From: an uncultured Methylococcaceae bacterium
GTDB lineage: Bacteria > Pseudomonadota > Gammaproteobacteria > Methylococcales > Methylomonadaceae
Length of the DNA: 37,025 nucleotides
Assembly: GCA_903934035.1 (NCBI GenBank)
Contig: CAIZMK010000130.1
Span: 1-37,025, forward strand
Direction of reading: 5' to 3'
Shown: positions 6,393-37,025 of the stretch, in pieces
Position numbering within the stretch: position 1 is the first letter of the stretch
How the letters are laid out: every line of letters begins with the position of its first letter
Notes under the pieces: model-generated
Seen by the model: the letters and a program-made list of their open reading frames with translations, nothing else
Told to the model about the DNA's origin: nothing
Databases searched by the model: none
Program-made: the position numbers and the translations under genes

Positions 6393-7355
6393 ATGACGAT
6401 ATTTATAAACATTATTTTGCTTTGTGGTTTTCTTATGACCTCGGCGTATGCTGAAAACGTTCAGCCTGCTGTCGGAGTTACATCCGCAAAATCACCCGCG
6501 CAGATGATAGACAGAGATTCTGAATGTACTCGCTGTCATGATGAAAATGAAACCAAACCGATACTGTCTATTTATCAGACTGCGCATGGTAATAAAGCCG
6601 ATGCTCGCACGCCTTCTTGCCAGTCTTGTCATGGCGAAAGTGTCAAGCATTTGACCAGTAAGACGGATGCTCCTGATGTGATTTTTGGTGTTAAAAAAGG
6701 TGTTTATACGCCTAATAAAGCACAAGATCAGAATGTGGCTTGTTTATCTTGTCATGAAAAAGATCCTAAGCGCACGCATTGGCAAGGTGGTGCTCATCAG
6801 GCGGCTGATTTAGCCTGTACCTCATGCCATGTTGTGCACTCGGCCCATGACAAAGTACGTGAGAAACCCACTCAAGCCTTAGTTTGCTTTACTTGTCATC
6901 AAGATCAAAAAGCGCAGGCGAATAAGTTTTCTCACCATCCGATTCCTGAAGGAAAAATTGCCTGTTCTGATTGCCATAATCCACATGGTTCGGCAGGACC
7001 GAAGTTACTAGTTAAAAATACGGTGACCGAAACCTGCTATACCTGCCATGCCGAAAAACGCGGGCCCTTTTTGTGGGAGCATCAGCCGGTCAGCGAAGAT
7101 TGTACTAACTGTCATACGCCACATGGCTCTAACATCACGCCGTTGCTTAAATCGCGTCCACCGTTTATGTGTGATGAATGTCACGATGGTCCTCATGCCA
7201 GTAAAAGTCCTGTAGCTGGTAATGCCGCAGGTTATCAAGGAGGCTTAGCCAGCACGTCCAACCCAAGTTCGAGTTATACCGGCAGAGCTTGTATGAATTG
7301 CCATAGCATGGTGCATGGTTCTAATGATCCAGCTGGCGCACTTTTACAACGTTAA
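6393..7355 (+). CDS. Decaheme c-type cytochrome, DmsE/MtrA family
   Basis: A 320-residue periplasmic protein with a signal peptide cut after AYA (residue 20). There are ten CXXCH motifs from Cys45 to His304 (CTRCH, CQSCH, CLSCH, CTSCH, CFTCH, CSDCH, CYTCH, CTNCH, CDECH, CMNCH), with extra His residues as distal ligands. Length, heme number and the HGSNDPAG ending fit the DmsE/MtrA/PioA group, which forms a heme wire plugged into an outer-membrane barrel. The barrel gene follows after 19 bp, supporting a conduit that moves electrons between periplasm and cell surface. No outer-surface MtrC/OmcA-type decaheme lipoprotein is encoded here. The direction of electron flow cannot be told from sequence. 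Confidence 0.92.
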   Translation: MTIFINIILLCGFLMTSAYAENVQPAVGVTSAKSPAQMIDRDSECTRCHDENETKPILSIYQTAHGNKADARTPSCQSCHGESVKHLTSKTDAPDVIFGVKKGVYTPNKAQDQNVACLSCHEKDPKRTHWQGGAHQAADLACTSCHVVHSAHDKVREKPTQALVCFTCHQDQKAQANKFSHHPIPEGKIACSDCHNPHGSAGPKLLVKNTVTETCYTCHAEKRGPFLWEHQPVSEDCTNCHTPHGSNITPLLKSRPPFMCDECHDGPHASKSPVAGNAAGYQGGLASTSNPSSSYTGRACMNCHSMVHGSNDPAGALLQR

Positions 7356-7374
7356 ACTAATAACGGAGATAGTC

Positions 7375-9825
7375 ATGAATACTCGTAATGAAAAAATGAA
7401 TATCAGTATCTTAGGGTTAGCGGTGCAGTGTGCATTGATGACGGCTGTCGCCTTGCCACTGAATGTTGGTGCTGATGATGACGTGGATGCTTTAAAGCGT
7501 CCAACTAACTCGGTAGAGTTCGGCTCTTTATATTCCAGTCAAAACTCGGCTCGGTTTGGTCAATATAATGGCTTGAATGATGGTGGCTTTTATGGTCTAG
7601 GTAGCTTTGATGTGCGCGGTGGAGAGGGTTATGACGACAGTAAAAATAGCGCTTTGCGCTGGAATTTGAACGGTAGCAATCTCGGCACGACTTCCAGAAC
7701 AGTGGATGGCTCGGTTAGTGATCAGGGTAAATGGAAAGTAAATCTAGGTTACGACGAACTGCAGCATAACATCACGAATACCTATCAAACTCCGCTACAA
7801 GGCAGCGTAGGTGGTAATAACTTCACCTTGCCTTCAAATTTTGGACCTATTGGCACAACGGCTGTTCCAAACACACGCTCGCTGAATTCAACTCAATTGG
7901 GTGCTTTTAATACTGAAAAAGAGTCTGTTAGTCGTAAAAATGGCTCGATAAGCACTGCTTATACTTTCAATGAAAGCTTAAGTGCGCAAATTGATTACAA
8001 CCATTTAGATCAGTCGGGTGCAAAACTAATTGGTACTGGTTCGATGGGCGGTATAAACGTAGGGACTGGAATTGGGAGTGCTGGTTATAAAGGTACTAAC
8101 GAAGCCGTAAATATCCTAATGAATCCTACTCGTTATCAGACCGATAATGTCAATGCGGCTTTGAATTGGAGAGGTGATAAAGGTCATCTAACTGGCGGTT
8201 ATTATGGTTCGATTTTTCATGATGATTATAATAGTCTGAGCTGGCAAAGTGCGGTAGTGACTCCGGGTACAGGAGGTTGTGCAGGTGCCAATTGTTATAC
8301 CAATAATACGATGAGTACTGCGCCTAGCAATAGCTTGCATCAGGCCAATTTAACAGGCGGTTATAATTTCACGCCAACCACCAAGTTGGCGGGTGGTTTT
8401 TCTTACGGTTATAACCAGCAAAATTCGGCTTTTGCTCCCACTAACATAGCGCAAGTTAACGGTACTTACGCCAATATGATGTGGGGAGCTGGTTTGCCGG
8501 GTGCGTCGTTGAATGGCGTGGTTGAAACAACTCATGGTGATTTAAAACTGACCAATCAAAGCATCAAAGATCTAACCTTAACGGCTGGGTTTAAGTTTAA
8601 TGAGCGCGATAATCGCACTGACTCTTCAATATATCAATTTAAAGCCATTAACGATGCGCTTGCTACAAACGTTAGCAATGTTCCTGTGGCAACTACAAAT
8701 TATACCGGTGTGAATACCCCGTATAGCAACAGCAAAACTCAGTATGAGGCATCGGCGGCATATCGACTGACTAAAGCCCAAAATATCAATCTGGCTTATG
8801 ATCATGAGAGTGTCAGGCGTTGGTGTGATAGTGTGGCGATAGGCGCAGCTCAATGTGTAGCTAGCCCTGCCAGCGAAGAGGATAAAATAGGCCTGACTTA
8901 TCGGTTGAAAGCGAGAGATGATGTCAATTTTAATGCGGGTTACACCTATGCAAATCGCCGCGCAGACGTATCGAACTTCCAAGCTAATGCTGGCAATTAC
9001 GGTATTACTAGCCTAGTTACTTCAACCGCTACTGGCTCTGCTGACTCTGGCTTTAATGCAGGTAACTTCCTTGGTTACGCCGCTTTTCCTTACGCGAATC
9101 GTAATCAAAATTTGGGTAAAGCCGGTGTTAATTGGCAGGTTACTCAAAAATTGGATTTGGGTCTGAATGGCCGTTACACCTACGATAGTTATGATGCGGC
9201 ACTGGGTGTGCAGAATGGACATACAGCGGGTGTTAATGTTGATGCAACCTATAACTATGCTGAAAATAGTAGCGTTTCCGCTTATTGGAATTGGCAGAAC
9301 GGACAACGCAATATGCGTAGTGGTATTGGTGGTGCTAATGGTAATACCAGTGCCGCTGTAGTGGGTGCAGCTTCTCAAACAGTAGCACCTACTAATTTAT
9401 GGAATAACCAGCTTGAAGATAACAGCAATACTGTGGGTCTGTTGACTCGGCGTACTGGTTTACTGAGTGGCAAACTTGATCTTATTGGCGATTTATCTTA
9501 TGCACGGGATACCACGGGCTATTCAACCCAAGTGCTTTATACACCTAGTACCAATATCGCCTGTGGTAGTGCGGCTTCTTTGACTTGCGGATCCTTGCCA
9601 CCTATTGCAAATGAAATAATTAGTATGAAACTGACGGGGCATTACAAGGTTCATAAAAATGGCAAGCTTGCTTTGACTTATATGTATCAAAAGTTAAATA
9701 GCAATGACTATTATTATTACGGGCAGCAGTTTTCTACTACGCCATCCACGCTTATGCCCACCAATTTACAGATGCAAAGTTACGCCGTTAATGTCGTCGC
9801 TCTGTCTTATAACTACAGCTTTTAG
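7375..9825 (+). CDS. MtrB/PioB-family decaheme-associated outer-membrane beta-barrel
   Basis: The best start is ATG 7375, behind a GGAG ribosome binding site, giving 816 residues; an upstream in-frame ATG at 7315 overlaps the cytochrome gene. A signal peptide ends near Ala33 (NVGA). The mature start has RPTNSVEFG and ARFGQYNGL, typical of MtrB/PioB N-termini. The rest is alternating beta strands rich in Gly, Asn and Tyr, ending in YNYSF with the terminal Phe expected for BAM-inserted porins. The family sheathes an MtrA-type decaheme cytochrome in the outer membrane. The CXXC pair near the N-terminus of Shewanella MtrB is not present. It is cotranscribed with the decaheme gene and the next gene (9-bp gap). 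Confidence 0.9.
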   Translation: MNTRNEKMNISILGLAVQCALMTAVALPLNVGADDDVDALKRPTNSVEFGSLYSSQNSARFGQYNGLNDGGFYGLGSFDVRGGEGYDDSKNSALRWNLNGSNLGTTSRTVDGSVSDQGKWKVNLGYDELQHNITNTYQTPLQGSVGGNNFTLPSNFGPIGTTAVPNTRSLNSTQLGAFNTEKESVSRKNGSISTAYTFNESLSAQIDYNHLDQSGAKLIGTGSMGGINVGTGIGSAGYKGTNEAVNILMNPTRYQTDNVNAALNWRGDKGHLTGGYYGSIFHDDYNSLSWQSAVVTPGTGGCAGANCYTNNTMSTAPSNSLHQANLTGGYNFTPTTKLAGGFSYGYNQQNSAFAPTNIAQVNGTYANMMWGAGLPGASLNGVVETTHGDLKLTNQSIKDLTLTAGFKFNERDNRTDSSIYQFKAINDALATNVSNVPVATTNYTGVNTPYSNSKTQYEASAAYRLTKAQNINLAYDHESVRRWCDSVAIGAAQCVASPASEEDKIGLTYRLKARDDVNFNAGYTYANRRADVSNFQANAGNYGITSLVTSTATGSADSGFNAGNFLGYAAFPYANRNQNLGKAGVNWQVTQKLDLGLNGRYTYDSYDAALGVQNGHTAGVNVDATYNYAENSSVSAYWNWQNGQRNMRSGIGGANGNTSAAVVGAASQTVAPTNLWNNQLEDNSNTVGLLTRRTGLLSGKLDLIGDLSYARDTTGYSTQVLYTPSTNIACGSAASLTCGSLPPIANEIISMKLTGHYKVHKNGKLALTYMYQKLNSNDYYYYGQQFSTTPSTLMPTNLQMQSYAVNVVALSYNYSF

Positions 9826-25798: not shown

Positions 25799-26920
25799 AT
25801 GACGACTAAAGTTGCGCTTATAACCGGTATTACCGGACAAGATGGATCTTATTTAGCTGAGTTCTTGTTGGCTAAAGGATACGAAGTACATGGCATTAAA
25901 CGCCGTACATCTTCATTTAATACCCAACGTATCGATCATATTTACCAAGACAATCACGTAGCTAATGCCAAGCTTAAGTTACATTATGGTGACTTAACCG
26001 ATACCTCAAACATTAATCGTATATTGCAAGAAGTGCAGCCTGATGAGGTTTATAACTTAGGCGCACAATCGCATGTGGCCGTCAGTTTTGAAGCCCCTGA
26101 ATATACGGCAGATGTTGATGCAACGGGCGCTTTACGTATTTTAGAAGGCATACGCTTTTTAGGTTTAGAGAAAAAAACCCGCTTTTACCAAGCCAGTACT
26201 TCTGAATTATATGGTTTGGTGCAAGAAACACCGCAAACAGAAACCACACCTTTTTACCCGCGTTCACCTTATGCAGTAGCCAAGCTGTATGCTTATTGGA
26301 TTACCGTTAATTACCGTGAAGCTTATGGTCTGTATGCCTGTAACGGTATTTTGTTTAATCATGAATCACCGCGTCGTGGCGAAACCTTTGTAACCCGCAA
26401 AATTACCCGTGGTATGGCTAACATTGCTCAAGGTCTTGAAGACTGTTTGTTTATGGGTAATATTGATGCCCTGCGCGATTGGGGTCATGCTAAAGATTAT
26501 GTAGAAATGCAATGGCTGATGTTGCAACAAGAAACGCCCGATGATTTCGTCATAGCCACTGGCGTTCAATACAGTGTGCGTGAATTTATTAATAAAACCG
26601 TTGCACAACTAGGAATAGAATTGGCTTGGGAAGGCGAGGCAGTAGATGAAATAGGTCGAGTCGCGTCTATTACTGGCGATAAAGCGCCAGGACTTAAAGT
26701 AGGCGATGTCATCGTTAAAATTGATCCACGTTATTTTCGCCCAACTGAAGTAGAAACCTTGCTGGGCAACCCTGCTAAAGCTAAAGAGAAGTTAGGTTGG
26801 ACGCCTAAAATCACCCTAGATGAAATGATCGAAGAAATGGTTGCTTATGATCTTGACCAAGCAAAACAGCATGCTTTATTAAAAAACAATGGCTTTAATG
26901 TTGTTGTTGGACGGGAATAA
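25799..26920 (+). CDS. gmd: GDP-mannose 4,6-dehydratase
   Basis: A 373-residue extended short-chain dehydrogenase that makes GDP-4-keto-6-deoxymannose, the precursor of D-rhamnose, L-fucose and related sugars. The NADP-binding [10 protein letters not shown] is at the N-terminus, followed by the family motif [12 protein letters not shown]. The catalytic set is STSELYG with Tyr158 and Lys162 (YAVAK). [17 protein letters not shown] is a Gmd hallmark. The length matches E. coli Gmd (373). It opens the polysaccharide cluster. A second Gmd-like gene at 30154 may reduce or otherwise process the product. Confidence 0.96.
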
Positions 26921-27031: not shown

Positions 27032-28180
27032 ATGAAAGTAATTTTATCAATTGATCCTGTCCGCTTTCCTTTGACGGGCATCGGTAGGTATACGTACGAG
27101 TTGGCAAAGCACTTAAAAGAAATTGCTGAAGTAGAAGAGTTAAAGTTTTTATCGGGTTATCGCTTTGCTCAGTTACCTGAGCCTAGGCAAGCAAAAGCAA
27201 CTAATGAAGTGACTTCAAATAGGTTGCGTCAAGCCGTGCTTAAAAACCCATTAACTAGAGAGCTTTATAGTTTAGTTTCACCGTTGTTAAAGCAGCATGC
27301 TTTGCGTGGCTATACGGATCATGTTTATCATGGGCCTAATTTTTATTTGCCACCCTTTGCTGGGCCATCGGTTTGTACTTTTCATGACTTGTCGATATTT
27401 ACATGGGCGCATTGCCACCCACCTGAGCGTGTCAAATATATGCGTAAAGAAATTGCTGCTACGCTAAAACACGCAGACATGTTGATTACTGATACAGAGA
27501 CAACACGCCAAGAAGTTGCGGCTTATTTTAGTTGGCCCTTAGATAAAATACGTGCTGTGCCTTTAGCATGTTCTGGTGATTTTAGGCCCAGAAATGAAGC
27601 TGCGTTAAGTACAGTATTAACCAAGCATGGTTTAGCCATGCAAGGCTACAGCTTATATGTGGGCACCATAGAGCCACGCAAGAATTTAGAAGTCTTATTA
27701 GATGCTTATGCGCTGTTACCGCAAGCCCTTAGGCAACAATGGCCTTTGATATTAATAGGGTATCAGGGTTGGCGTAGCGAGCACTTGCATGAGCGGATTA
27801 AAGCAGCCGCTTCAGAAGGCTGGGCACGTTATTTAGGTTTTGTTGAAGCAGATGAGTTACCGTTAATTTATGCCGGTGCGCGTGTATTTGTATTTCCATC
27901 GCTTTATGAAGGTTTTGGTTTGCCAGTGCTTGAAGCTATGGCATCAGGTATTCCGGTGATCTGTTCTAATGCCTCAACTTTGCCAGAAGTAGCAGGCGAT
28001 GCGGCAGCGATGTGCGAACCACAAGACGTTGATGCTTTAAGTGAATCGATTAGCCGGGCGCTGCAAGACCAAAGCTGGCGTGAACTAGCGGTAAAGAAAG
28101 GTTTGCTGCAAGCTTCTAAATTCAGCTGGCAACGCTGTGCAAAAGAGACTGCTGCCGTTTATAAAGAGGTGCTTGCTTGA
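27032..28180 (+). CDS. GT4-family glycosyltransferase (WbpY-like)
   Basis: A 382-residue GT-B enzyme. The N-terminal acceptor domain starts VILSIDPVRFPLTGIGRYTYEL, split here as motifs PVRFPLTGIGRYT and YHGPNFYLPP. The C-terminal donor domain has GTIEPRKN, then the EX7E motif in EGFGLPVLE. The PLTGIGRYTYEL opening resembles the A-band D-rhamnosyltransferases WbpX/WbpY of Pseudomonas aeruginosa, which use GDP-D-rhamnose. With gmd upstream and Wzm/Wzt downstream, a GDP-linked 6-deoxyhexose or mannose donor is likely. Acceptor and linkage cannot be told. The next gene starts inside its stop codon. Confidence 0.88.
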   Translation: MKVILSIDPVRFPLTGIGRYTYELAKHLKEIAEVEELKFLSGYRFAQLPEPRQAKATNEVTSNRLRQAVLKNPLTRELYSLVSPLLKQHALRGYTDHVYHGPNFYLPPFAGPSVCTFHDLSIFTWAHCHPPERVKYMRKEIAATLKHADMLITDTETTRQEVAAYFSWPLDKIRAVPLACSGDFRPRNEAALSTVLTKHGLAMQGYSLYVGTIEPRKNLEVLLDAYALLPQALRQQWPLILIGYQGWRSEHLHERIKAAASEGWARYLGFVEADELPLIYAGARVFVFPSLYEGFGLPVLEAMASGIPVICSNASTLPEVAGDAAAMCEPQDVDALSESISRALQDQSWRELAVKKGLLQASKFSWQRCAKETAAVYKEVLA

Positions 28181-29310
28181 ATCAAAAGCCCATCAGAGTC
28201 TTACATTTTTATAGGACCTCTTTTCCAGATACCATGGGTGGTATTGAGCAGGTTATCAATCAAATTGCCAGAGGCTGCGTTAACTTAGGTATTCAGGTCG
28301 ATGTATTGTCACTGACAGCCAATAAAGATATTAGAACGATTGAGATAGATGGTTATTTAGCCCATCGAGCACGCTTAGATTTTCAGATTGCTTCAACAGG
28401 TTTTTCTATTTCTGCCTTTTGGCGGTTTTATCAATTGGCTAAACAAGCCGATATTATTCATTACCATTATCCGTGGCCGTTTATGGATGTGGTGCATTTT
28501 GCAATGCGAGTTTGTAAACCGACGGTGGTGACTTATCACTCTGATATTATTCGTCAAGTGCATTTAAATAAGCTTTATCGGCCATTGAAACAAAAGTTTT
28601 TGAAAAGCATGAGTCGTATAGTGGCAACATCTCCTAATTATGTGGCGACTAGTAAGGTACTCGCTAAGTTTAAAGATAGCGTTAAGGTGATTCCAATTGG
28701 ACTAGATAAATCCACCTATCCCGAGGTGGAGTCCGAACGATTAGAGTTCTGGAGAGAAAAAGTAGGGGGCAAATTCTTTTTGTTTGTAGGGTTGATTCGT
28801 TATTATAAAGGCCTGCATATTCTACTTGAGGCCGCGCAAGGTACCGATTACCCGATTGTAATAGTAGGGGCAGGGCCGATTGAATCAGAATTGAAAGCGC
28901 AAGCAGCATACTTAGGCTTGAGTAATATTCACTTTCTGGGTTATCAGTCTGATGAAGATAAAGTTGCGTTGTTAACTTTAAGTTATGCGGTAGTTTTTCC
29001 CTCGCATTTGCGCTCTGAGGCTTTTGGTGTTTCTTTGCTTGAAGGGGCGATGTACGGCAAACCAATGATCTCTAGTGAAATTGGTACCGGTACTACGTAT
29101 ATTAATATTGCCGATGAAACTGGCTTGGTAGTCCCACCTAGTGACCCACTGGCACTAAGACAAGCCATGACCTATTTGTGGGAACATCCAGAGCAGGCGG
29201 AAGAAATGGGACAACGTGCTGAATTGCGATATAAAGATTTTTTTACTGCTGATCGTATGGTTAAGTCGTATGTTGATTTATATCAAGAATTGCAAGATGG
29301 AATTAAATAA
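28177..29310 (+). CDS. GT4-family glycosyltransferase (WbpZ-like)
   Basis: A 377-residue GT-B enzyme starting at TTG 28177, which overlaps the preceding stop (TTGA), a sign of translational coupling. The opening IRVLHFYRTSFPDTMGGIEQ resembles WbpZ, the transferase that begins A-band polysaccharide on the lipid-linked GlcNAc. The donor domain has FVGLIRYYKGLH and the EX7E region SEAFGVSLLEGAMYGKP. If the similarity holds, it would use a primer made by a WecA-type enzyme such as the one at 1805-3061. Substrate is inferred. Confidence 0.86.
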   Translation: MNQKPIRVLHFYRTSFPDTMGGIEQVINQIARGCVNLGIQVDVLSLTANKDIRTIEIDGYLAHRARLDFQIASTGFSISAFWRFYQLAKQADIIHYHYPWPFMDVVHFAMRVCKPTVVTYHSDIIRQVHLNKLYRPLKQKFLKSMSRIVATSPNYVATSKVLAKFKDSVKVIPIGLDKSTYPEVESERLEFWREKVGGKFFLFVGLIRYYKGLHILLEAAQGTDYPIVIVGAGPIESELKAQAAYLGLSNIHFLGYQSDEDKVALLTLSYAVVFPSHLRSEAFGVSLLEGAMYGKPMISSEIGTGTTYINIADETGLVVPPSDPLALRQAMTYLWEHPEQAEEMGQRAELRYKDFFTADRMVKSYVDLYQELQDGIK

Positions 29311-29391: not shown

Positions 29392-30111
29392 ATGAATACT
29401 AAACTCCTAATTATTACTACCGTAGCATGCCTTAATTTAGTAGCTTGCGGAGAAGAGTCAGAGCCAATTAGTGCGCCCGCACCTATTGTAGAAGTATATA
29501 ATGGCTACAATGCAAGCCTTGCGCAAGGCATTCAGTTTTCAGAAAAACCCGATTATCCGGCATTTATAAAGTCCGTTTCGGGTATGTCGGGATTTGAACC
29601 GATAGGGCGCTGGACCGAGGGAGAGCATGTTGACTTTACCTTTATTCAAAATTTACCAGCCAAGTTTACTTTAGAGCTTGATATGGCTCCTGCTTTTGGT
29701 CCTGAAGTAGGCAAAACTATAACGATACAAGTGGGTAGTTGGACTGATAAATTTGTTTCTAGTGATAAGCCTAAAAAAATTAACTTCAATATTGAGACAA
29801 CGATACCAACTGACAGCATTAAATTTACAATTCCAGAGCCAACAAGCCCATTAGATTTAGGCGTAAGTGAAGATGCAAGAAAAGTGGGCATAATGTTTAA
29901 GCGCTTAAGCATTCTTTCTGATGCTATGGTAACGATGATTCCAGCAGTGACTACTGCGCCAGTTATTGAGCCAACACCAGTGCCCGCTACAGAAGAACCA
30001 ACGACGGATATATCAACAAAACCTGCTGTTGAAAAATCTACTCAGATAAAAAAGCCTCTTGACCGAAAGAAAAGCGTTAAGACCACGCCTGATTCTGCGT
30101 TAGCAAAGTGA
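29392..30111 (+). CDS. Lipoprotein with a solitary DUF7024-like domain
   Basis: A 239-residue protein with a type II signal peptide (lipobox LVAC, Cys19), so lipid-anchored in the periplasm. Residues about 50-180 show GFEPIGRWTEGEHVDF, LPAKFTLELDMAPAFGPEVGK and the ending PTSPLDLGVSEDARKVG. These fit the small beta domain often fused to the C-terminus of polytopic membrane glycosyl- or phosphoglycerol-transferases (DUF7024 in my recollection). Here it stands alone, followed by a Thr/Pro-rich then Lys-rich tail. The ribosome binding site is AAAGG. It lies between a glycosyltransferase and a nucleotide-sugar gene, so binding or modifying the polysaccharide in the periplasm is possible. Confidence 0.7.
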   Translation: MNTKLLIITTVACLNLVACGEESEPISAPAPIVEVYNGYNASLAQGIQFSEKPDYPAFIKSVSGMSGFEPIGRWTEGEHVDFTFIQNLPAKFTLELDMAPAFGPEVGKTITIQVGSWTDKFVSSDKPKKINFNIETTIPTDSIKFTIPEPTSPLDLGVSEDARKVGIMFKRLSILSDAMVTMIPAVTTAPVIEPTPVPATEEPTTDISTKPAVEKSTQIKKPLDRKKSVKTTPDSALAK

Positions 30112-30153: not shown

Positions 30154-31119
30154 ATGACAAAAACAGCACTCATTACCGGAATAGGCGGCCAAGATGGCGC
30201 CTACCTTGCGCAACTATTGCTTACTAAAGGCTATGCTGTTTTTGGTACCTCACGTGATGCGGGTGCTTCAAGTTTTAGCTCGCTGGTACACTTGGGTATT
30301 ATTGAGCAGATTAAGCTTTTGTCGATGGCTCCGCATGATTTTAAAAGCACGCTAACGGTGATATCAAAAGTCCAGCCAGATGAAATCTATCATCTGGCTG
30401 GACAAACCTCGGTGGGTTTGTCATTTGAGCAACCCTCAGAAACGATTGAGAGCATTACCATTGGGACACTTAATGTTCTTGAGGCGTTGCGATTTTTAAA
30501 ATTACCGGCAAAGTTTTATCACGCAAGTTCCAGTGAATGTTTTGGCGACACCCAAGCTTTGCCTGCCGATGAACAAACGCCTTTTAATCCAGTAAGTCCT
30601 TATGCAGTGGCAAAAGCATCAGCGTATTGGTTGGTTAGAAATTATCGAGATGCACATAATATGTTTGCAGTAAATGGCATTTTGTTTAATCACGAATCAG
30701 CGCTGCGACCGGAGCGGTTTGTCACTCAAAAAGTAGTACGAGCCGCTTACAGAATTGCACAAGGATCAACAGAAAAACTAACCTTGGGTGCATTATGTAT
30801 CTCCCGTGATTGGGGTTGGGCGCCAGAGTATGTAGAAGCTATGTGGTTGATGCTGCAAATTGAGCAAGCCGATGATTTTGTTATTGCTACAGGCCAAACC
30901 AATTCACTTCAAGATTTTGTTGCCCAGGTTTTTGCCTGTTTTGGATTGGACTGGACCCAACATGTATTACATGATGATCAATTGATGCGCCCAAATGAAA
31001 TAGCTTGGAGCCAAGGCAATCCTCAAAGAGCCAAACAACTATTAGGATGGCAAGCCACAAAGAATATGAATGATGTGATCAAGATACTTTGCGCGCATAC
31101 GCCAAAAGCAGCCAAATAA
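30154..31119 (+). CDS. GDP-mannose 4,6-dehydratase-like nucleotide-sugar enzyme (second copy)
   Basis: A 321-residue extended SDR protein. ITGIGGQDGAYL binds NAD(P), and the catalytic motif is SSSECFG with Tyr150 and Lys154 (YAVAK). It shares with Gmd the NHESxxRxExFVTxK and RDWGxxxEYVExMWLMLQ segments, but it is 52 residues shorter, lacks the [11 protein letters not shown] loop and has SALRPERF where Gmd has SPRRGETF. By context it could be the 4-keto reductase giving GDP-D-rhamnose (Rmd role), but by sequence it is nearer to Gmd than to P. aeruginosa Rmd. Its stop overlaps the wzm start (TAATG). Confidence 0.8.
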   Translation: MTKTALITGIGGQDGAYLAQLLLTKGYAVFGTSRDAGASSFSSLVHLGIIEQIKLLSMAPHDFKSTLTVISKVQPDEIYHLAGQTSVGLSFEQPSETIESITIGTLNVLEALRFLKLPAKFYHASSSECFGDTQALPADEQTPFNPVSPYAVAKASAYWLVRNYRDAHNMFAVNGILFNHESALRPERFVTQKVVRAAYRIAQGSTEKLTLGALCISRDWGWAPEYVEAMWLMLQIEQADDFVIATGQTNSLQDFVAQVFACFGLDWTQHVLHDDQLMRPNEIAWSQGNPQRAKQLLGWQATKNMNDVIKILCAHTPKAAK

Positions 31120-31943
31120 TGAGCAGATATCATTCAGCAACCCCTGTTGCCATGCTGGGTAGTCTTTTTAGACATCGCGAACTGCTATGGGAATTGGTCA
31201 AACGGGACTTTATAGGTCGTTACAAAGGCTCGCTATTAGGCGTTGTCTGGTCTTTATTTAATCCCTTATTGATGCTAGCCATTTATACAGTCGTTTTTAG
31301 TGTGGCTTTTAAAGCGAAATGGGGCGGCACTGGCGAAGAAAGTAAAGTAGCCTTTGCCATCGTACTTTTTTCCGGCATGATCATTCACAGTTTTTTTGCT
31401 GAGTGCATCAACCGCTCACCAAATCTGATTATTAGCCACCCTCAATACGTTAAAAAGGTAATATTCCCACTTGAAATTTTACCTTGGATGGCAATGTTTT
31501 CAGCCCTATTACATTTTCTCGTTAGCTTTAGTGTGCTCTTGGTTTTTTGTTTACTGGCCGGAGTAACTATTCATATCGGTGTATTATTAACGCCCGTTAT
31601 TCTTTTTCCCTTGTTTTTGATGATATTGGGGTTTTCATGGGCTTTTGCATCGCTGGGTGTTTATTTACGTGACTTGTCTCAAGTTATCGGCATGGTGACT
31701 ACCGTTGCTCTTTTTATGGCGCCTATTTTTTATCCTATTGATGCACTCCCAGAGGATTATAGGGCTTTCTTGTTATGGAATCCGATTACCTTACCCGTGA
31801 TTCAGCTCCGTGACCTGATGCTTTGGGGAAAACCCATCTTATGGGAGCAATGGGCAGCCAGCTTAATAATCGGGCTGTTGATTTGCCAGACAGGTTACTG
31901 GTGGTTTCAAAAATCACGCAGGGGATTTTCCGATGTCCTCTAA
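31119..31943 (+). CDS. wzm: ABC-2 type polysaccharide exporter, permease subunit
   Basis: A 274-residue inner-membrane protein with about six helices. The amphipathic start (RHRELLWELVKRDFIGRYKG) and LLGVVWSLFNPL are typical of Wzm/TagG/KpsM permeases. With Wzt it flips a complete lipid-linked polysaccharide to the periplasm. ATG 31119 is chosen since it overlaps the preceding stop; an upstream in-frame ATG at 31089 would overlap that gene by 31 bp. The 3' end overlaps wzt by 11 bp. Confidence 0.93.
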   Translation: MSRYHSATPVAMLGSLFRHRELLWELVKRDFIGRYKGSLLGVVWSLFNPLLMLAIYTVVFSVAFKAKWGGTGEESKVAFAIVLFSGMIIHSFFAECINRSPNLIISHPQYVKKVIFPLEILPWMAMFSALLHFLVSFSVLLVFCLLAGVTIHIGVLLTPVILFPLFLMILGFSWAFASLGVYLRDLSQVIGMVTTVALFMAPIFYPIDALPEDYRAFLLWNPITLPVIQLRDLMLWGKPILWEQWAASLIIGLLICQTGYWWFQKSRRGFSDVL

Positions 31944-33387
31944 AGAAATTGTCATTGATGTGCGTAATGTCAGCAAGCGTTACGAAATCTACAATAAGCC
32001 AAGTGACCGCTTAAAGCAGCTGATATTGCCTAATGTGCAGCAAGCGGTCAATCGTACCGGTGTTGCGCTGAAAATAGCAAAGCATCGCCCCCGCCCCCAT
32101 TATTTTCGTGAATTCTGGGCATTAAACGATATTTCGTTTCAGGTAAAACGTGGTGAAACTTTCGGTATTATCGGTCGTAACGGCAGTGGTAAAAGCACCT
32201 TGTTGCAAATCCTCGCCGGGACTTTAGCCCAAACCAGTGGCGAAGCAACCGTCAATGGCCGCATTGCCGCGCTATTAGAATTGGGCAGTGGCTTTGATCC
32301 GGAGTTTACCGGACGCGAAAACGTCTTTTTAAACGGGCGTATATTAGGCCTTACCCAAAAAGAAATCGAAGCCCGCTACGACCAGATAGTCGACTTTGCA
32401 GATATTGGTGAATTTATCGATCAGCCAGTTAAAACTTATTCCAGTGGCATGTTTGTCCGCCTGGCTTTTGCTGTGCAGGCGCATATTGACGCCTCTATCG
32501 TCATCATTGATGAAGCATTGGCCGTTGGCGATGTGTTTTTTCGGCAAAAATGTTATGCCCGACTTGAGCAAATACGAAATTCAGGCGCAGCAATACTTTT
32601 AGTTTCTCACTCAATGGGCGATATTGAGCAATACTGTAGTCGTGCGATTCTTCTTGATCATGGAAAAGTGATTCGCATAGGAACTTCGGCAGAAGCAATT
32701 AAAGAATATTATTTGCTTGAACAATCCAGTCGACTTTCAACTATAGTTGCAGATAGGAGCGCAGAGCCAGAGCTGAAAAAAAGTAGTGATGAAACTACTG
32801 TATTGTTTCCGGCAAAGGCATCACTTCCCCTCGATCGAGTATCTCAAGTTAATGCATTTAATGCTCGCTGTCTGCGTGTCGCATTGACCGATATCAATGG
32901 TGATCCTAAAAGAAACTTTCGTGTTGGCGAGACTGCGATATTCTATCACGAGCATTGCTTTGGAGATCATAGCGCTATTCCTGTGGGCGGAGTGATCATT
33001 CATACAGAAAAAGGTACTATTCTTTACGGAAAGAGTTCAATTCAAACTAGAATGACTGGCGAGAAAACTGCTGCACCAAACGCTATTGTCCGATTTGAGC
33101 ATCAGATCGTTCTTTCTATTGCTCCTGGAGAATATACCTTTGATATTGGAATGTCAGCTATCAGCAAAAAAATACTAGAAGACTTAGATCAATTGACTCA
33201 TGAAGAAATTGACACTTTTAAAATACTACTAGTGCAGGCTACGGGTGTAGCGTCGTTTTCAATTTTAGCTGCCGGCACTGGACTGGCACCTTTTCATGGC
33301 TTGATCGATCTAGCCACAACGATTCGTGCTTCTATTTCTGCTGAAAATCCGGAAAAACCCGAATATTGTGGAGAGCTCAAGTTATGA
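31933..33387 (+). CDS. wzt: Polysaccharide ABC exporter ATPase with C-terminal carbohydrate-binding domain
   Basis: A 484-residue protein. The nucleotide-binding domain (1-about 255) has Walker A GRNGSGKST (Lys87), signature YSSGM, and Walker B IVIIDEALAVGD (Asp193-Glu194). The rest (about 310-470) is a beta-rich domain (RVALTDINGDPKRNFRVGE, SIAPGEYTFDIGM) of the Wzt C-terminal type, which in E. coli O8/O9a binds the modified non-reducing end of the chain and is needed for export. Its presence predicts that this polysaccharide carries a terminal cap. The stop overlaps the next gene by ATGA. Confidence 0.94.
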   Translation: MSSKEIVIDVRNVSKRYEIYNKPSDRLKQLILPNVQQAVNRTGVALKIAKHRPRPHYFREFWALNDISFQVKRGETFGIIGRNGSGKSTLLQILAGTLAQTSGEATVNGRIAALLELGSGFDPEFTGRENVFLNGRILGLTQKEIEARYDQIVDFADIGEFIDQPVKTYSSGMFVRLAFAVQAHIDASIVIIDEALAVGDVFFRQKCYARLEQIRNSGAAILLVSHSMGDIEQYCSRAILLDHGKVIRIGTSAEAIKEYYLLEQSSRLSTIVADRSAEPELKKSSDETTVLFPAKASLPLDRVSQVNAFNARCLRVALTDINGDPKRNFRVGETAIFYHEHCFGDHSAIPVGGVIIHTEKGTILYGKSSIQTRMTGEKTAAPNAIVRFEHQIVLSIAPGEYTFDIGMSAISKKILEDLDQLTHEEIDTFKILLVQATGVASFSILAAGTGLAPFHGLIDLATTIRASISAENPEKPEYCGELKL

Positions 33388-35540
33388 CGATTAATCTTGG
33401 TGCTGAAAATCACCTGAAATTTAGTACGCCGACAAGCCTAAAACCGCAAGTAATCAATTATCAAGTCAATGATATTTGTAATGCTCGTTGCGTGATGTGT
33501 AATGTATGGATGCGTCAGGTCGCGATTCAACAAACGCCTGATAGTTTTAGTTTACTTTTATCAGATGAGTACTTTAGTGAGGTTCGGCATCTTGGCATTA
33601 CAGGAGGCGAACCCACGCTACGACCTGACCTTGAACAATTTTATGAAAATGCACTCAAGGTACTACCAAATTTGCAACATGGACATTTCATTACCAACGG
33701 ATTTAGTCAGGCTAGGGCATTAGAAGCTTATTGTAAGGTAAAGGCAGTATATGCTGCGCGAGGAGCTTCATTTGCCGGTATGGTGTCCATTGATGGAGTT
33801 GGCAATGTACACAACTTAATTCGAGGTCGTCAAAATGCCTTTGTGCATGCATCAGTTACCCTATTTGCACTTCGTGAAGCAGGAATACCTGTAATTGCAT
33901 GCTGCACTATCGTCAAAGAAAATGTCTATGCACTTCATGATCTGCTCGATTGGGCTAAATTACATGGTATCGAATTGCGTTTCAGAATGGCCGAGTTCAT
34001 CGATCGTTTATATGTTGATCAAAGCAACACACATATTCGAGCATTTGAACCTCATGAAGTTAAGCATCTAGTTGCTTTTTTTCATTATCTCATCCATTTT
34101 TACGAAACAAAAAGCGAGATTTGCAGAACTTATGAGTCAATACTTTCTCTGTTGACCGGCGGTGTACGCTTAACAGGCTGCCCTTATCAAAGCTCACAAG
34201 CTATAAGTATTGATTGTGAGGGTAGGTTTTCTCACTGTTCACCGAAAGGCATACCTCATTCATTAGGTTCCATGCCTGGACTGGAAGTCCTGAAGTTTGA
34301 ACCAGATCGTAAAAAGCTACTTGAAAAACATTGTTCACAATGTATACACGATTATCATTTCGACTGGTCACCAAATGAATCAATGAAGCGTGCAAGCAAC
34401 GCTTTGTCTAATCAACAACTTTATGGTGAACCAGTCGACCTTGCAGTTATTCAAGAATCTGATTACTGGGCTATTGAGCCAGGCAGATTAAATCATATCC
34501 TCTTGATTGGCTGGTATGGAACAGAAACAGCTGGCGACATTGCTATTCTTGCGGGAGTTATAGGCAAATATGCAAAAAACCACCCCAATGCACGTTTCAC
34601 ATTACTGAGTCTGTTTCCCCATTACACGGCTATTACGATCAACGACCTTCCTGCCAATTTGCTATCGCATATCAAGGTGTTCGACTACGCCAGTGAAGAT
34701 GCAAAACTGGCCGCCGACGTGGCCGATGCTTTGGTGATGGCCGGCGGCCCATTAATGGATATTCCACAGACTGCGATGATTGCATCATTGTTTTTTCGAT
34801 TTGCAGAGCGAGCCAGACCCAGGATAATAGAAGGTTGTGGTATTGGTCCTCTTAACATCGAGCAGTACCGTGATAATGTCATAGCAATCGCGAGATTAGC
34901 GACAGAGATAACTGTGAGAGATCACGATAGTGCGAAACGCTTACGGCAATGGGACATTAAAAAACCAATCGAAGTGCAGCCAGATCCTGCACGCGATTAT
35001 ATTCGGAGTCTCGGAATAGCTTGGAATGGGTTAAGCAGTGAAATCATTACTTGTTTCCTGCGTGAACTCACCTCCGAGTATCCCCAAGCGACAACACAAG
35101 AAGCCGCTGAAAAAGTTCTGATCGATTTTTTGCAACAGCTCTTGGAAACTTATCCACAAGCGCGTATTGAATTGCTAGCCATGCACTACTTCCCTATTGG
35201 GAATGATGATCGTCTATTTGCTCGGAAAATAGCGGCCAAGATTGGAAATAAACGTCTTATAGTTCCTATGGAGCCACTGTCACCCAGGGAGTTGATTGAG
35301 CGAATGGCATGTTCGGCGTTTTGTATTGCTATGCGCTTTCATTCAGTGGTTTTTGCACATACCATAGGTGCGCCATTTATCGCGATAGATTACACGGCTG
35401 GTGGCAAAATTGCTGGATTTTTGAGCGATATGGGTGAAGAAAAGCGATGCTTTGATTTCCAGAAAATTAAATTACTAACCTCTGATATGATCAAAGAATT
35501 GGTTGAAGACGCTATGAAATCAGTGAGCAAAGTGGAATGA
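33384..35540 (+). CDS. Radical SAM (SPASM-like) - polysaccharide pyruvyltransferase fusion
   Basis: ATG 33384 overlaps the wzt stop (ATGA), giving 718 residues; a start at 33366 is possible but less likely. The N-domain has the [4Fe-4S] motif CNARCVMC (Cys32, 36, 39), GGEPT (74-78), and a later Cys set (266, 278, 285, 317, 320) like a SPASM/twitch auxiliary cluster site. From about 371 the C-domain has IGWYGTETAGDIAIL, MAGGPLMD, EGCGIGPLN and AMRFHSVVFAHTIGAP (Arg651, His653), the pattern of the CsaB/WcaK pyruvyltransferase family. That family adds ketal-linked pyruvate from PEP to sugars. The fusion may modify the polysaccharide twice or make a pyruvylated cap. The radical SAM substrate is unknown. 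Confidence 0.88.
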   Translation: MTINLGAENHLKFSTPTSLKPQVINYQVNDICNARCVMCNVWMRQVAIQQTPDSFSLLLSDEYFSEVRHLGITGGEPTLRPDLEQFYENALKVLPNLQHGHFITNGFSQARALEAYCKVKAVYAARGASFAGMVSIDGVGNVHNLIRGRQNAFVHASVTLFALREAGIPVIACCTIVKENVYALHDLLDWAKLHGIELRFRMAEFIDRLYVDQSNTHIRAFEPHEVKHLVAFFHYLIHFYETKSEICRTYESILSLLTGGVRLTGCPYQSSQAISIDCEGRFSHCSPKGIPHSLGSMPGLEVLKFEPDRKKLLEKHCSQCIHDYHFDWSPNESMKRASNALSNQQLYGEPVDLAVIQESDYWAIEPGRLNHILLIGWYGTETAGDIAILAGVIGKYAKNHPNARFTLLSLFPHYTAITINDLPANLLSHIKVFDYASEDAKLAADVADALVMAGGPLMDIPQTAMIASLFFRFAERARPRIIEGCGIGPLNIEQYRDNVIAIARLATEITVRDHDSAKRLRQWDIKKPIEVQPDPARDYIRSLGIAWNGLSSEIITCFLRELTSEYPQATTQEAAEKVLIDFLQQLLETYPQARIELLAMHYFPIGNDDRLFARKIAAKIGNKRLIVPMEPLSPRELIERMACSAFCIAMRFHSVVFAHTIGAPFIAIDYTAGGKIAGFLSDMGEEKRCFDFQKIKLLTSDMIKELVEDAMKSVSKVE

Positions 35541-37025
35541 AATCAATTTCAGTAACACATGTAAGTACCTATAACGCACGAGGTGGAGCAGGAATAGCCT
35601 CTACACGTCTGCATCTGGCGCTTCGTGCCAGTGGTGCAAAATCAAACCATTTGGTACGCTTCAAGACGGGAAGTGATCCTTATACATATATTGCTGATGT
35701 GGCAGATTTTGATAACACAGATGATGCGATAATTGCACGAATGATCCAGACTGAATCTATCGATAAGCGTCGTACACCAATTAGTAATACCTTATTTACA
35801 CTTAGTTATCCTGGTATTGATCTCACAAAACATCCTGTTTTAGCTCGTAGCGATGTGATTAATCTGCACTGGATATCTTCGTTTCAGTCCATCGAGTCGA
35901 TCGGGTCACTTCTTTCAACTGGTATTCCAGTCGTCTGGACATTGCATGATCAACATGCTTTCACCGGAGGATGTCACTACGCAGCGGGTTGTTTGGGCTA
36001 TATGCAAGATTGTTCCGGCTGTCCTCAACTTGCTGTTGACCCTTACGGCCTTGCGCCAAAACGTCTCAAAGATCGAATTGATCTTTTTTCAGCTTCACAT
36101 CGACCTGTAATAGTCACGCCAAGCGAATGGATGCATCAGTGCGCCTTGAGTAGTCAGGTGTTCCGTAACGCGGAAATTGTTACTATCCCCAACTCTGTTC
36201 CGATTGAACGATTTTATCCGGGAATACGCAGCGAAGCCCGTCGTATATTAGGTATCAATGACGTTGCTACTTGTATTCTTTTTGGTGCAGAAAATCACCA
36301 AGAAAAAAGAAAAGGTTTTGCCGACCTGTTGACAGCATTACAAATGCGTCTTGCAGATCCAATCACTGCGGCAGCACTTAAGCAAGTGACCATTCTATGT
36401 TTTGGAGAGCCGTCTGAAGATCTTTCCCTTACCGGTTTACGCATAGTCTCACTGGGTAAAGTTGATGATGAGGGCTTGCTTAGGCAAGCCTATGTAGCTG
36501 CAGATCTTTTCGTGCTTCCTTCGCACGAAGATAATCTCCCAAACACTGTATTGGAATCACTAGCCTGTGGCACACCTATACTTGCTTGCAATGTTGGAGG
36601 GATTTCTGAAGCAGTTCGACATGGTGAGACAGGATGGCTTGTACCCAAAGAGAACAGCGAAGCATTGGGACTGGCATTGGTGGATTTATTGAAACATCCT
36701 GAGCGTTTGCAAGAATGGTCTGCAGCGGCACGAAGAGATGCAGTAGAAAAATTTTCACCCACGGTACAATCACAACGATATTTAAATTTGTACGACGACT
36801 TACTTCCACGAAGTCTTGCTTTACGAAGCAATGATCATGCAAACTATAATAATGGGAAGCCTTCTATAAATATTTTTCGATCAGATTTCTTCGATAGTAT
36901 ATTTCATTCTGTCTCGAGCGAAACTGTGCTTTCGGCTTATGTAAGTCTAGTAAGAGCGCATGAGATAGCCGAGATTGATCGCAGCTCACGTGGTGAGCAA
37001 ATAGACATTTTGTCTAAGCAACTCA
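35537..37025 (+). CDS. GT4-family glycosyltransferase, WcaC-like, cut by the window end
   Basis: Starts at ATG 35537, overlapping the previous stop (ATGA). The frame stays open to the end, 496 codons. The N-domain has HVSTYNARGGAGIASTRLH and the Cys-rich loop TGGCHYAAGC with DCSGCPQL, hallmarks of WcaC-type colanic-acid and related glycosyltransferases. The donor domain has GAENHQEKRKGF and the EX7E region HEDNLPNTVLE. A normal GT4 would end near residue 430; here about 65 more residues run to the edge (SINIFRSDFFDSIF, SSETVLSAYVSL, heptad-like end), so a second domain probably follows. It probably adds a sugar to the exported chain. Confidence 0.85.
   Translation, partial: MKSISVTHVSTYNARGGAGIASTRLHLALRASGAKSNHLVRFKTGSDPYTYIADVADFDNTDDAIIARMIQTESIDKRRTPISNTLFTLSYPGIDLTKHPVLARSDVINLHWISSFQSIESIGSLLSTGIPVVWTLHDQHAFTGGCHYAAGCLGYMQDCSGCPQLAVDPYGLAPKRLKDRIDLFSASHRPVIVTPSEWMHQCALSSQVFRNAEIVTIPNSVPIERFYPGIRSEARRILGINDVATCILFGAENHQEKRKGFADLLTALQMRLADPITAAALKQVTILCFGEPSEDLSLTGLRIVSLGKVDDEGLLRQAYVAADLFVLPSHEDNLPNTVLESLACGTPILACNVGGISEAVRHGETGWLVPKENSEALGLALVDLLKHPERLQEWSAAARRDAVEKFSPTVQSQRYLNLYDDLLPRSLALRSNDHANYNNGKPSINIFRSDFFDSIFHSVSSETVLSAYVSLVRAHEIAEIDRSSRGEQIDILSKQL

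What the first reader, a model, noticed from the sequence alone, without database searches (positions are those of the whole stretch)
33384..35540. Radical SAM/SPASM-like domain fused to a polysaccharide pyruvyltransferase
One uninterrupted 718-residue frame carries CNARCVMC, GGEPT and a second Cys cluster, then a complete CsaB/WcaK-like domain with the MRFHS motif. Each family is known, but I know of no characterised enzyme joining them. It sits inside an ABC-dependent polysaccharide operon, coupled by ATGA to wzt and to a glycosyltransferase. A two-step modification of a sugar (radical epimerisation, dehydrogenation or deoxygenation, then ketal pyruvylation) is a testable idea.
Basis: partly seen in the sequence, partly recalled or inferred. 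Interest (0 to 1): 0.78.

Follow-up and report, generated by a model that had tools for sequence, protein, structure and literature searches.

The report
Radical SAM–pyruvyltransferase fusion enzyme
A single bacterial protein joins a radical-chemistry enzyme to one that decorates surface sugars with pyruvate; the same rare fusion occurs in unrelated bacteria, so it is real, but what it makes has not been tested.

Summary
Window 33384-35540 is one open 718-codon frame with PF04055 (residues 28-181) and PF04230 (384-670), both above cut-off, overlapping wzt and a GT4 gene by ATGA. It is not an assembly error: three further full fusions were found, two in Chloroflexota and one in another Pseudomonadota class. 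The four form one clade in both half-trees with the same branching, so the domains probably joined once. An exporter gene, Wzt or Wzx, precedes the fusion in 4 of 4; a related GT4 gene follows in 3 of 4. Correction: the second Cys group is a four-Cys twitch pattern, not SPASM. Close standalone relatives of the radical half lie near glycosyltransferases in 10 of 16 loci, but in 5 of 16 beside an exported-looking protein. Best reading: a glycan-tailoring enzyme, radical oxidation or epimerisation of a sugar plus ketal pyruvylation. Domains, ligands and folds are supported; substrates and reactions are inferred. Five searches of an open-licence paper library found no paper naming both families. 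New variant of known kinds, rare, moderately interesting.

The parts
33384..35540 (+). Fusion gene, 718 aa: N-terminal radical SAM plus twitch, C-terminal polysaccharide pyruvyltransferase
   Evidence: full-length relatives
33465..33926 (+). Radical SAM core matched by PF04055 (residues 28-181); CxxxCxxC = C32, C36, C39; GGEP at 74-77
   Evidence: model pLDDT about 89 to 98 by ten-residue block between residues 51 and 200
34179..34343 (+). Twitch-type auxiliary cluster region, C266, C285, C317, C320
   Evidence: all four invariant in the 17 radical SAM rows of A4 and in 4 of 4 fusions; aligned with BtrN in the mixed profile A5
34533..35393 (+). Polysaccharide pyruvyltransferase domain matched by PF04230 (residues 384-670); R651, H653, K675 aligned to PEP-site residues of Pvg1p
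   Evidence: fold matches
31933..33387 (+). wzt, ABC transporter ATPase with Wzt_C domain, overlaps the fusion by ATGA
31089..31943 (+). wzm, ABC-2 membrane protein
35537..37025 (+). GT4 glycosyltransferase, runs off the contig end; related to the GT4 beside two other fusions
30154..31119 (+). GDP-mannose 4,6-dehydratase family protein, below the gmd cut-off; an RMD-like reductase is a guess
25799..26920 (+). GDP-mannose 4,6-dehydratase family protein
27032..29310 (+). two GT4 glycosyltransferases (27032-28180 and 28177-29310)

Best explanation
A bifunctional glycan-tailoring enzyme of the cytoplasm. Step 1 (inferred): the N-terminal half binds a [4Fe-4S] cluster through C32, C36 and C39, cleaves SAM, and the 5'-deoxyadenosyl radical takes a hydrogen from a carbinol carbon of a sugar in the lipid-linked or growing glycan. 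A second cluster held by four Cys (C266, C285, C317, C320) passes the electron. The likeliest net result is dehydrogenation to a keto-sugar, with epimerisation close behind. Step 2 (inferred): the C-terminal half takes PEP and adds a pyruvate ketal to the same glycan, before export by Wzm/Wzt here or Wzx elsewhere. Supported by sequence or model: both domains, their ligand residues, both folds, one origin of the fusion, polysaccharide gene surroundings. Not shown: substrates, products, order of steps, that both act on one molecule.
Against: No substrate is known for any relative of the N-half. In 5 of the 16 closest standalone loci (L103, L104, L107, L114, L116, part of one subclade of 6) the neighbour is a conserved, exported-looking protein with SpaA-like domains in the three scanned, and no glycosyltransferase was seen near by; that fits a protein target. 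A twitch profile of the four fusions alone found no radical SAM structure in the PDB, so the BtrN match rests on the mixed profile, and the twitch part of the model is low in confidence. Standalone radical SAM and pyruvyltransferase genes were not found side by side: 0 of 38 radical SAM loci and 0 of 7 pyruvyltransferase loci. Pvg1p is not among the 50 fold matches listed for the C-half.
Confidence: 0.45

Rival explanations
1. The halves act apart: the C-half pyruvylates the glycan, while the radical half modifies something else, such as a protein or peptide, a sugar nucleotide precursor or a lipid carrier, and the fusion serves co-expression.
For: The nearest solved structure is the peptide maturase SkfB. 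In 5 of the 16 closest standalone loci the neighbour is a conserved exported-looking protein, 38 to 86% identical between loci. The closest standalone genes have no pyruvyltransferase nearby. PMC6231123 warns that function is hard to predict from similarity networks in this subfamily (passages).
Against: Both halves share one tree order and one origin. The fused form has invariant residues in the radical half (R208, H322, D323, Y324 and others) that are absent from 36 of 36 other rows. Pfam found no further domain in the window protein. No such exported protein was seen beside the four fusions.
Confidence: 0.3
2. Chain-terminating cap enzyme: the fusion caps the finished chain with a modified, pyruvylated sugar that the C-terminal module of Wzt reads before export, as WbdD does with methyl-phosphate in E. 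coli O9a (WbdD recalled).
For: In both ABC-type loci the fusion lies directly downstream of a wzt with a Wzt_C domain. Terminal residues read by Wzt modules, and terminal pyruvate by WbbZ, are described in PMC10629545 and PMC11231755 (passages).
Against: Two of four fusions lie beside a Wzx-like flippase. The Wzt_C parts of the window and of L016 are not similar (best E 6.8). In K. pneumoniae O1 the terminal pyruvate is not needed for export (passages). A coiled-coil ruler was not looked for.
Confidence: 0.15
3. The radical half is a decayed or regulatory domain and only the pyruvyltransferase works.
For: The window copy scores weakest for PF04055 of the four fusions (36.3 bits against 58.4, 52.5 and 65.8).
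Against: All three core Cys, the GGEP motif and all four auxiliary Cys are kept in 4 of 4 fusions, and the barrel model is confident.
Confidence: 0.06
4. Assembly artefact joining two genes.
For: The assembly is in 295 contigs and the window is a whole contig.
Against: Three further full fusions in other genomes, one frame without stops, one origin in both trees.
Confidence: 0.01

Closest known systems
CsaB / Pvg1p / WbbZ ketal pyruvyltransferases (PF04230, TIGR03609)
   Same: C-half covers the Pfam model almost end to end. R651, H653, K675 match PEP-site residues of Pvg1p named in PMC10435577 (passages; alignment).
   Different: TIGR03609 scores 96.8 bits, below its cut-off of 213.1. As recalled, the characterised enzymes are not joined to a radical SAM half.
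BtrN, twitch radical SAM dehydrogenase
   Different: The fusion-only twitch profile does not find it; SkfB and BlsE are closer in fold; substrate unknown.
BlsE, cytosylglucuronate decarboxylase, radical SAM on a sugar acid
   Different: TIGR04466 25.8 bits against a cut-off of 400.
Standalone Chloroflexota radical SAM-twitch proteins (unnamed)
   Same: Group with the fusion N-halves, support 98/95 (midpoint root); same Cys set, one shortened row aside.
   Different: No pyruvyltransferase half; lack R201, R208, H322, D323, Y324; two kinds of neighbourhood.

Membership tests
Radical SAM superfamily (PF04055) | CxxxCxxC cluster motif and profile match above cut-off | tested here: met
   36.3 bits against 29.5; C32, C36, C39 in 40 of 40 rows; barrel model
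SPASM domain | seven Cys for two auxiliary clusters (definition from PMC6231123 passages) | tested here: not met
   past the core, the Cys conserved in the 4 fusions are C266, C285, C317 and C320
Twitch domain, BtrN type | four Cys holding one auxiliary cluster | tested here: inconclusive
   Cys pattern present and aligned with BtrN in the mixed profile; not found with the fusion-only profile; low model confidence there
Polysaccharide pyruvyltransferase (PF04230) | profile match above cut-off over the whole domain | tested here: met
   89.6 bits against 25.3, profile 3-278 of 280
Ketal pyruvyltransferase, PEP site | R, H and K of the PEP site (R337, H339, K361 of Pvg1p, passages) | tested here: met
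   R651, H653, K675 aligned in a weak match, E 0.0069; invariant in 4 of 4 fusions
Ketal pyruvyltransferase, PEP site | two further Arg (R148, R207 of CsaB, passages) | tested here: inconclusive
   R512 and R560 are invariant in 8 rows and probable counterparts, but CsaB itself was not aligned
CsaB equivalog (TIGR03609) | score above 213.1 bits | tested here: not met
   96.8 bits
Named radical SAM equivalogs in NCBIfam | score above the curated cut-off | tested here: not met
   best radical SAM score 53.9 against 306.05; the other three fusions are below every cut-off shown. One search shows 25 of 36 families, one search shows 25 of 31 for L102 and all for L003 and L016 at E 1e-8
Pyruvate ketal on the glycan | product | not testable with these tools
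   needs NMR or mass spectrometry

The most novel reading that the evidence does not exclude
The founding member of a new enzyme family: a single-chain, two-step sugar maturase in which a radical SAM-twitch half oxidises or inverts a sugar in a nascent surface glycan and the fused half locks that sugar as a pyruvate ketal, spread by lateral transfer between phyla, often with its partner glycosyltransferase. It would mean radical chemistry on a lipid-linked or polymeric glycan.
Probability: 0.36. Interest if true: 0.78.

Novelty: new variant of a known kind. Interest (0 to 1): 0.5.

Why it matters
Radical SAM genes lie near glycosyltransferases in several of the loci read here (Pfam-confirmed in 10 of 16 close relatives) without a known job. 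A physical fusion to a pyruvyltransferase, kept as one unit across two phyla, ties one such radical enzyme to a glycan step and gives a defined test: look for an altered, pyruvylated sugar that vanishes when C36 or H653 is changed. It also extends the partner list of pyruvyltransferase domains, which here include a flippase and a chain of glycosyltransferase domains.

Tried and rejected
Assembly error: rejected, three independent copies. Separate adjacent genes as an independent test of coupling: looked for in windows of up to about 20 kb and not found, 0 of 38 radical SAM loci and 0 of 7 pyruvyltransferase loci; several contigs are short, and the profiles used were built from three fusions, so distant members can be missed. 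Plasmids: no match. Phages: 2 records, radical half only, 25-26% identity. Viral contigs: no fusion; one search gave one radical-half match. A shared cap read by Wzt: the Wzt_C parts are not similar. Full-length AlphaFold with two sequences: mean pLDDT 52.8, so a second job on the N-half was run. Fusion-only twitch profile against the PDB: three chance-level hits, none radical SAM. Pvg1p 5ax7 is absent from the 50 rows, BtrN from the 50 rows. A 607-aa frame in G046 was checked as a possible fusion: radical SAM match only, no pyruvyltransferase match. Paper searches naming both families: 0 papers in each (looser terms) listed 12 of 55, none on the subject by title. A 2019 survey of chain-termination chemistry (Mann and others, cited) is not held, so it could already mention such a fusion. 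The scan of the gene run gave 20 promoter-like sites against 26.9 in shuffles, and 17 terminator-like against 10.2; nothing was built on it.

Full report
WHAT IS THERE. The frame at 33384-35540 (+) encodes 718 residues without a stop; the other five frames of the stretch hold 36 to 57 stops. Pfam finds PF04055 at 28-181 and PF04230 at 384-670, both above the curated cut-offs. The gene overlaps wzt upstream and a GT4 gene downstream by ATGA. The window is the whole of contig C130 of its genome, so the downstream GT4 gene is cut by the contig end. The genome also holds a PF02461 protein (methane or ammonia monooxygenase subunit A family), which suggests a methanotroph or an ammonia oxidiser.

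IT IS NOT AN ARTEFACT. A scan of named genomes gave a full-length relative in a Chloroflexi MAG contig (L003, 819 aa, about 29% identity). Each has both Pfam domains above cut-off.

HOW RARE. Genomes with a full fusion, out of all examined in each call and counting the query genome where it was in the set: 1 of 61, 2 of 398, 1 of 350, 1 of 78, 1 of 311, 2 of 298, 1 of 20, 1 of 274 and 1 of 154. The samples overlap, E-value limits ran from 1e-3 to 1e-80, and in the larger searches only the first two, three or seven candidates of a genome were scored, so a copy could be missed. The other listed matches were judged half-length from the query range and frame length; long frames were checked (G483 and G1101; G046). 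All full hits are the same four genomes. Pseudomonadota and Chloroflexota were sampled, plus one genome reached through L004; other phyla were covered only by the pattern scan, which reaches close relatives.

ONE ORIGIN. In a tree of 40 radical SAM domains the four fusion N-halves are one clade (support 99/98). In a tree of 11 pyruvyltransferase domains the four C-halves are one clade (89/84, below the program's own star level). Both give the order (L003,(window,(L016,L102))). The simplest reading is one joining event followed by joint inheritance. The order puts a Chloroflexota copy (L102) next to a Pseudomonadota copy (L016), which suggests transfer between phyla. Caveats: few rows in the C-half tree, midpoint rooting, and L003 at least is a MAG, so contigs may be misbinned.

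SURROUNDINGS. Window: GDP-mannose dehydratase family gene, two GT4 genes, a DUF7024 protein, a second dehydratase family gene, wzm, wzt, fusion, GT4. L016: Wzm, Wzt with Wzt_C, fusion, methyltransferase, GT4, epimerase. L102: Wzx-like, fusion, GT4, GT2. L003: WecG-like, Wzx-like, fusion, GT4. An exporter gene therefore comes just before the fusion in 4 of 4. The GT4 proteins of the window, L016 and L102 are alike, 32 to 34% over 422 to 436 columns, E 2.4e-50 to 2.4e-72. Their best match to any of the five control GT4 proteins was 3.7e-17 over 101 columns, and 1e-8 to the window's other GT4 over 308; but two control GT4 proteins of one locus match each other at 3.6e-66, so such likeness is not unique. 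In L016 one gene lies between fusion and GT4. The GT4 of L003 is a fragment and did not match.

STANDALONE RELATIVES. The 16 rows that group with the fusion N-halves (98/95) come from Chloroflexota genomes and have no pyruvyltransferase match in their windows. Ten of the 16 windows have a Pfam-confirmed glycosyltransferase, in most next to the radical SAM gene (L106; L105, L108, L109, L110, L111, L112, L113, L117; L115). The other six form one subclade (L103, L104, L107, L114, L116, L118). Of these, L107 has an epimerase-family gene and L116 a hexapeptide transferase near by. In five of the six the neighbour is a protein of 873 to 1011 aa, 38 to 86% identical between loci, with an exported-looking start and SpaA-like domains in the three scanned. 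That points to a protein target, or to a surface layer, for this subclade, and is the strongest result against a purely glycan reading.

FUSION-SPECIFIC RESIDUES. G71, R201, R208, F233, H322, D323 and Y324 are the same in 4 of 4 fusions and in 0 of 16 close and 0 of 20 other rows. For the last three, 5, 8 and 10 of 40 rows have a gap there. R201 depends on the alignment: in the profile alignment two other rows also have R there. H322-D323-Y324 follows the last auxiliary Cys. With four fusions this is a lead, not a statistic.

MECHANISM. Established knowledge: radical SAM enzymes cut SAM to a 5'-deoxyadenosyl radical; PF04230 enzymes move pyruvate from PEP to sugars as ketals. Inference here: the radical half acts on a carbinol carbon of the sugar and the other half ketalises the same glycan before export. 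I rank dehydrogenation first because the four-Cys set resembles the fully ligated cluster of BtrN, then epimerisation. If the glycan carries 6-deoxyhexoses, as two GDP-mannose dehydratase family genes suggest, a 4,6-ketal is impossible on those residues, and a 2,3- or 3,4-ketal or another residue would be the acceptor. A chain-terminating cap read by Wzt was considered; two Wzx loci and dissimilar Wzt_C parts speak against it as a general role.

PRIOR KNOWLEDGE. Five library searches pairing radical SAM with pyruvyltransferase terms found no paper. The library holds open-licence papers only. I read passages, not whole papers, of PMC10435577, PMC10629545, PMC6231123 and PMC11231755. A 2019 survey of chain-termination chemistry was not held.

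VERDICT. Real, rare in the samples searched, most simply of one origin, and not found described in the searches made. Both parts belong to known superfamilies, so it is a new variant of known kinds. Interest is moderate because the chemistry is a reasoned guess.

Noticed in passing
L105, L106, L108-L113, L115, L117, e.g. L106:8796-9893: Standalone radical SAM-twitch proteins of about 360-415 aa near glycosyltransferase genes in Chloroflexota; the one scanned reaches no NCBIfam cut-off shown.
   Followed up: partly
L103:1653-5512, L104:5892-9796, L107:3463-7389, L114:5698-9785, L116:2791-6840: A radical SAM-twitch gene followed by a conserved exported-looking protein of 873-1011 aa with SpaA-like domains (three scanned); possibly a maturase and its target.
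   Followed up: partly
L063:8223-11267: A pyruvyltransferase domain fused to a flippase domain (PF13440) in one 1014-aa frame, Chloroflexota.
   Followed up: partly
L121:3961-10548: A 2195-aa frame with a pyruvyltransferase domain among several glycosyltransferase domains.
   Followed up: partly
window 6393-9825: Multihaem cytochrome gene followed by an MtrB/PioB porin gene, an extracellular electron transfer type pair, in a genome that also has a PF02461 monooxygenase subunit.
   Followed up: no
window 29392-30111: A DUF7024 protein with a lipoprotein-like start inside the polysaccharide gene run.
   Followed up: no
L119:8413-9993: A pyruvyltransferase with a long N-terminal extension in another family of the window's order; nearest outside row to the fusion C-halves but on a very long branch.
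   Followed up: no
window 30370-30403: A 14-pair stem followed by a T-run on the minus strand inside the gene at 30154-31119.
   Followed up: no
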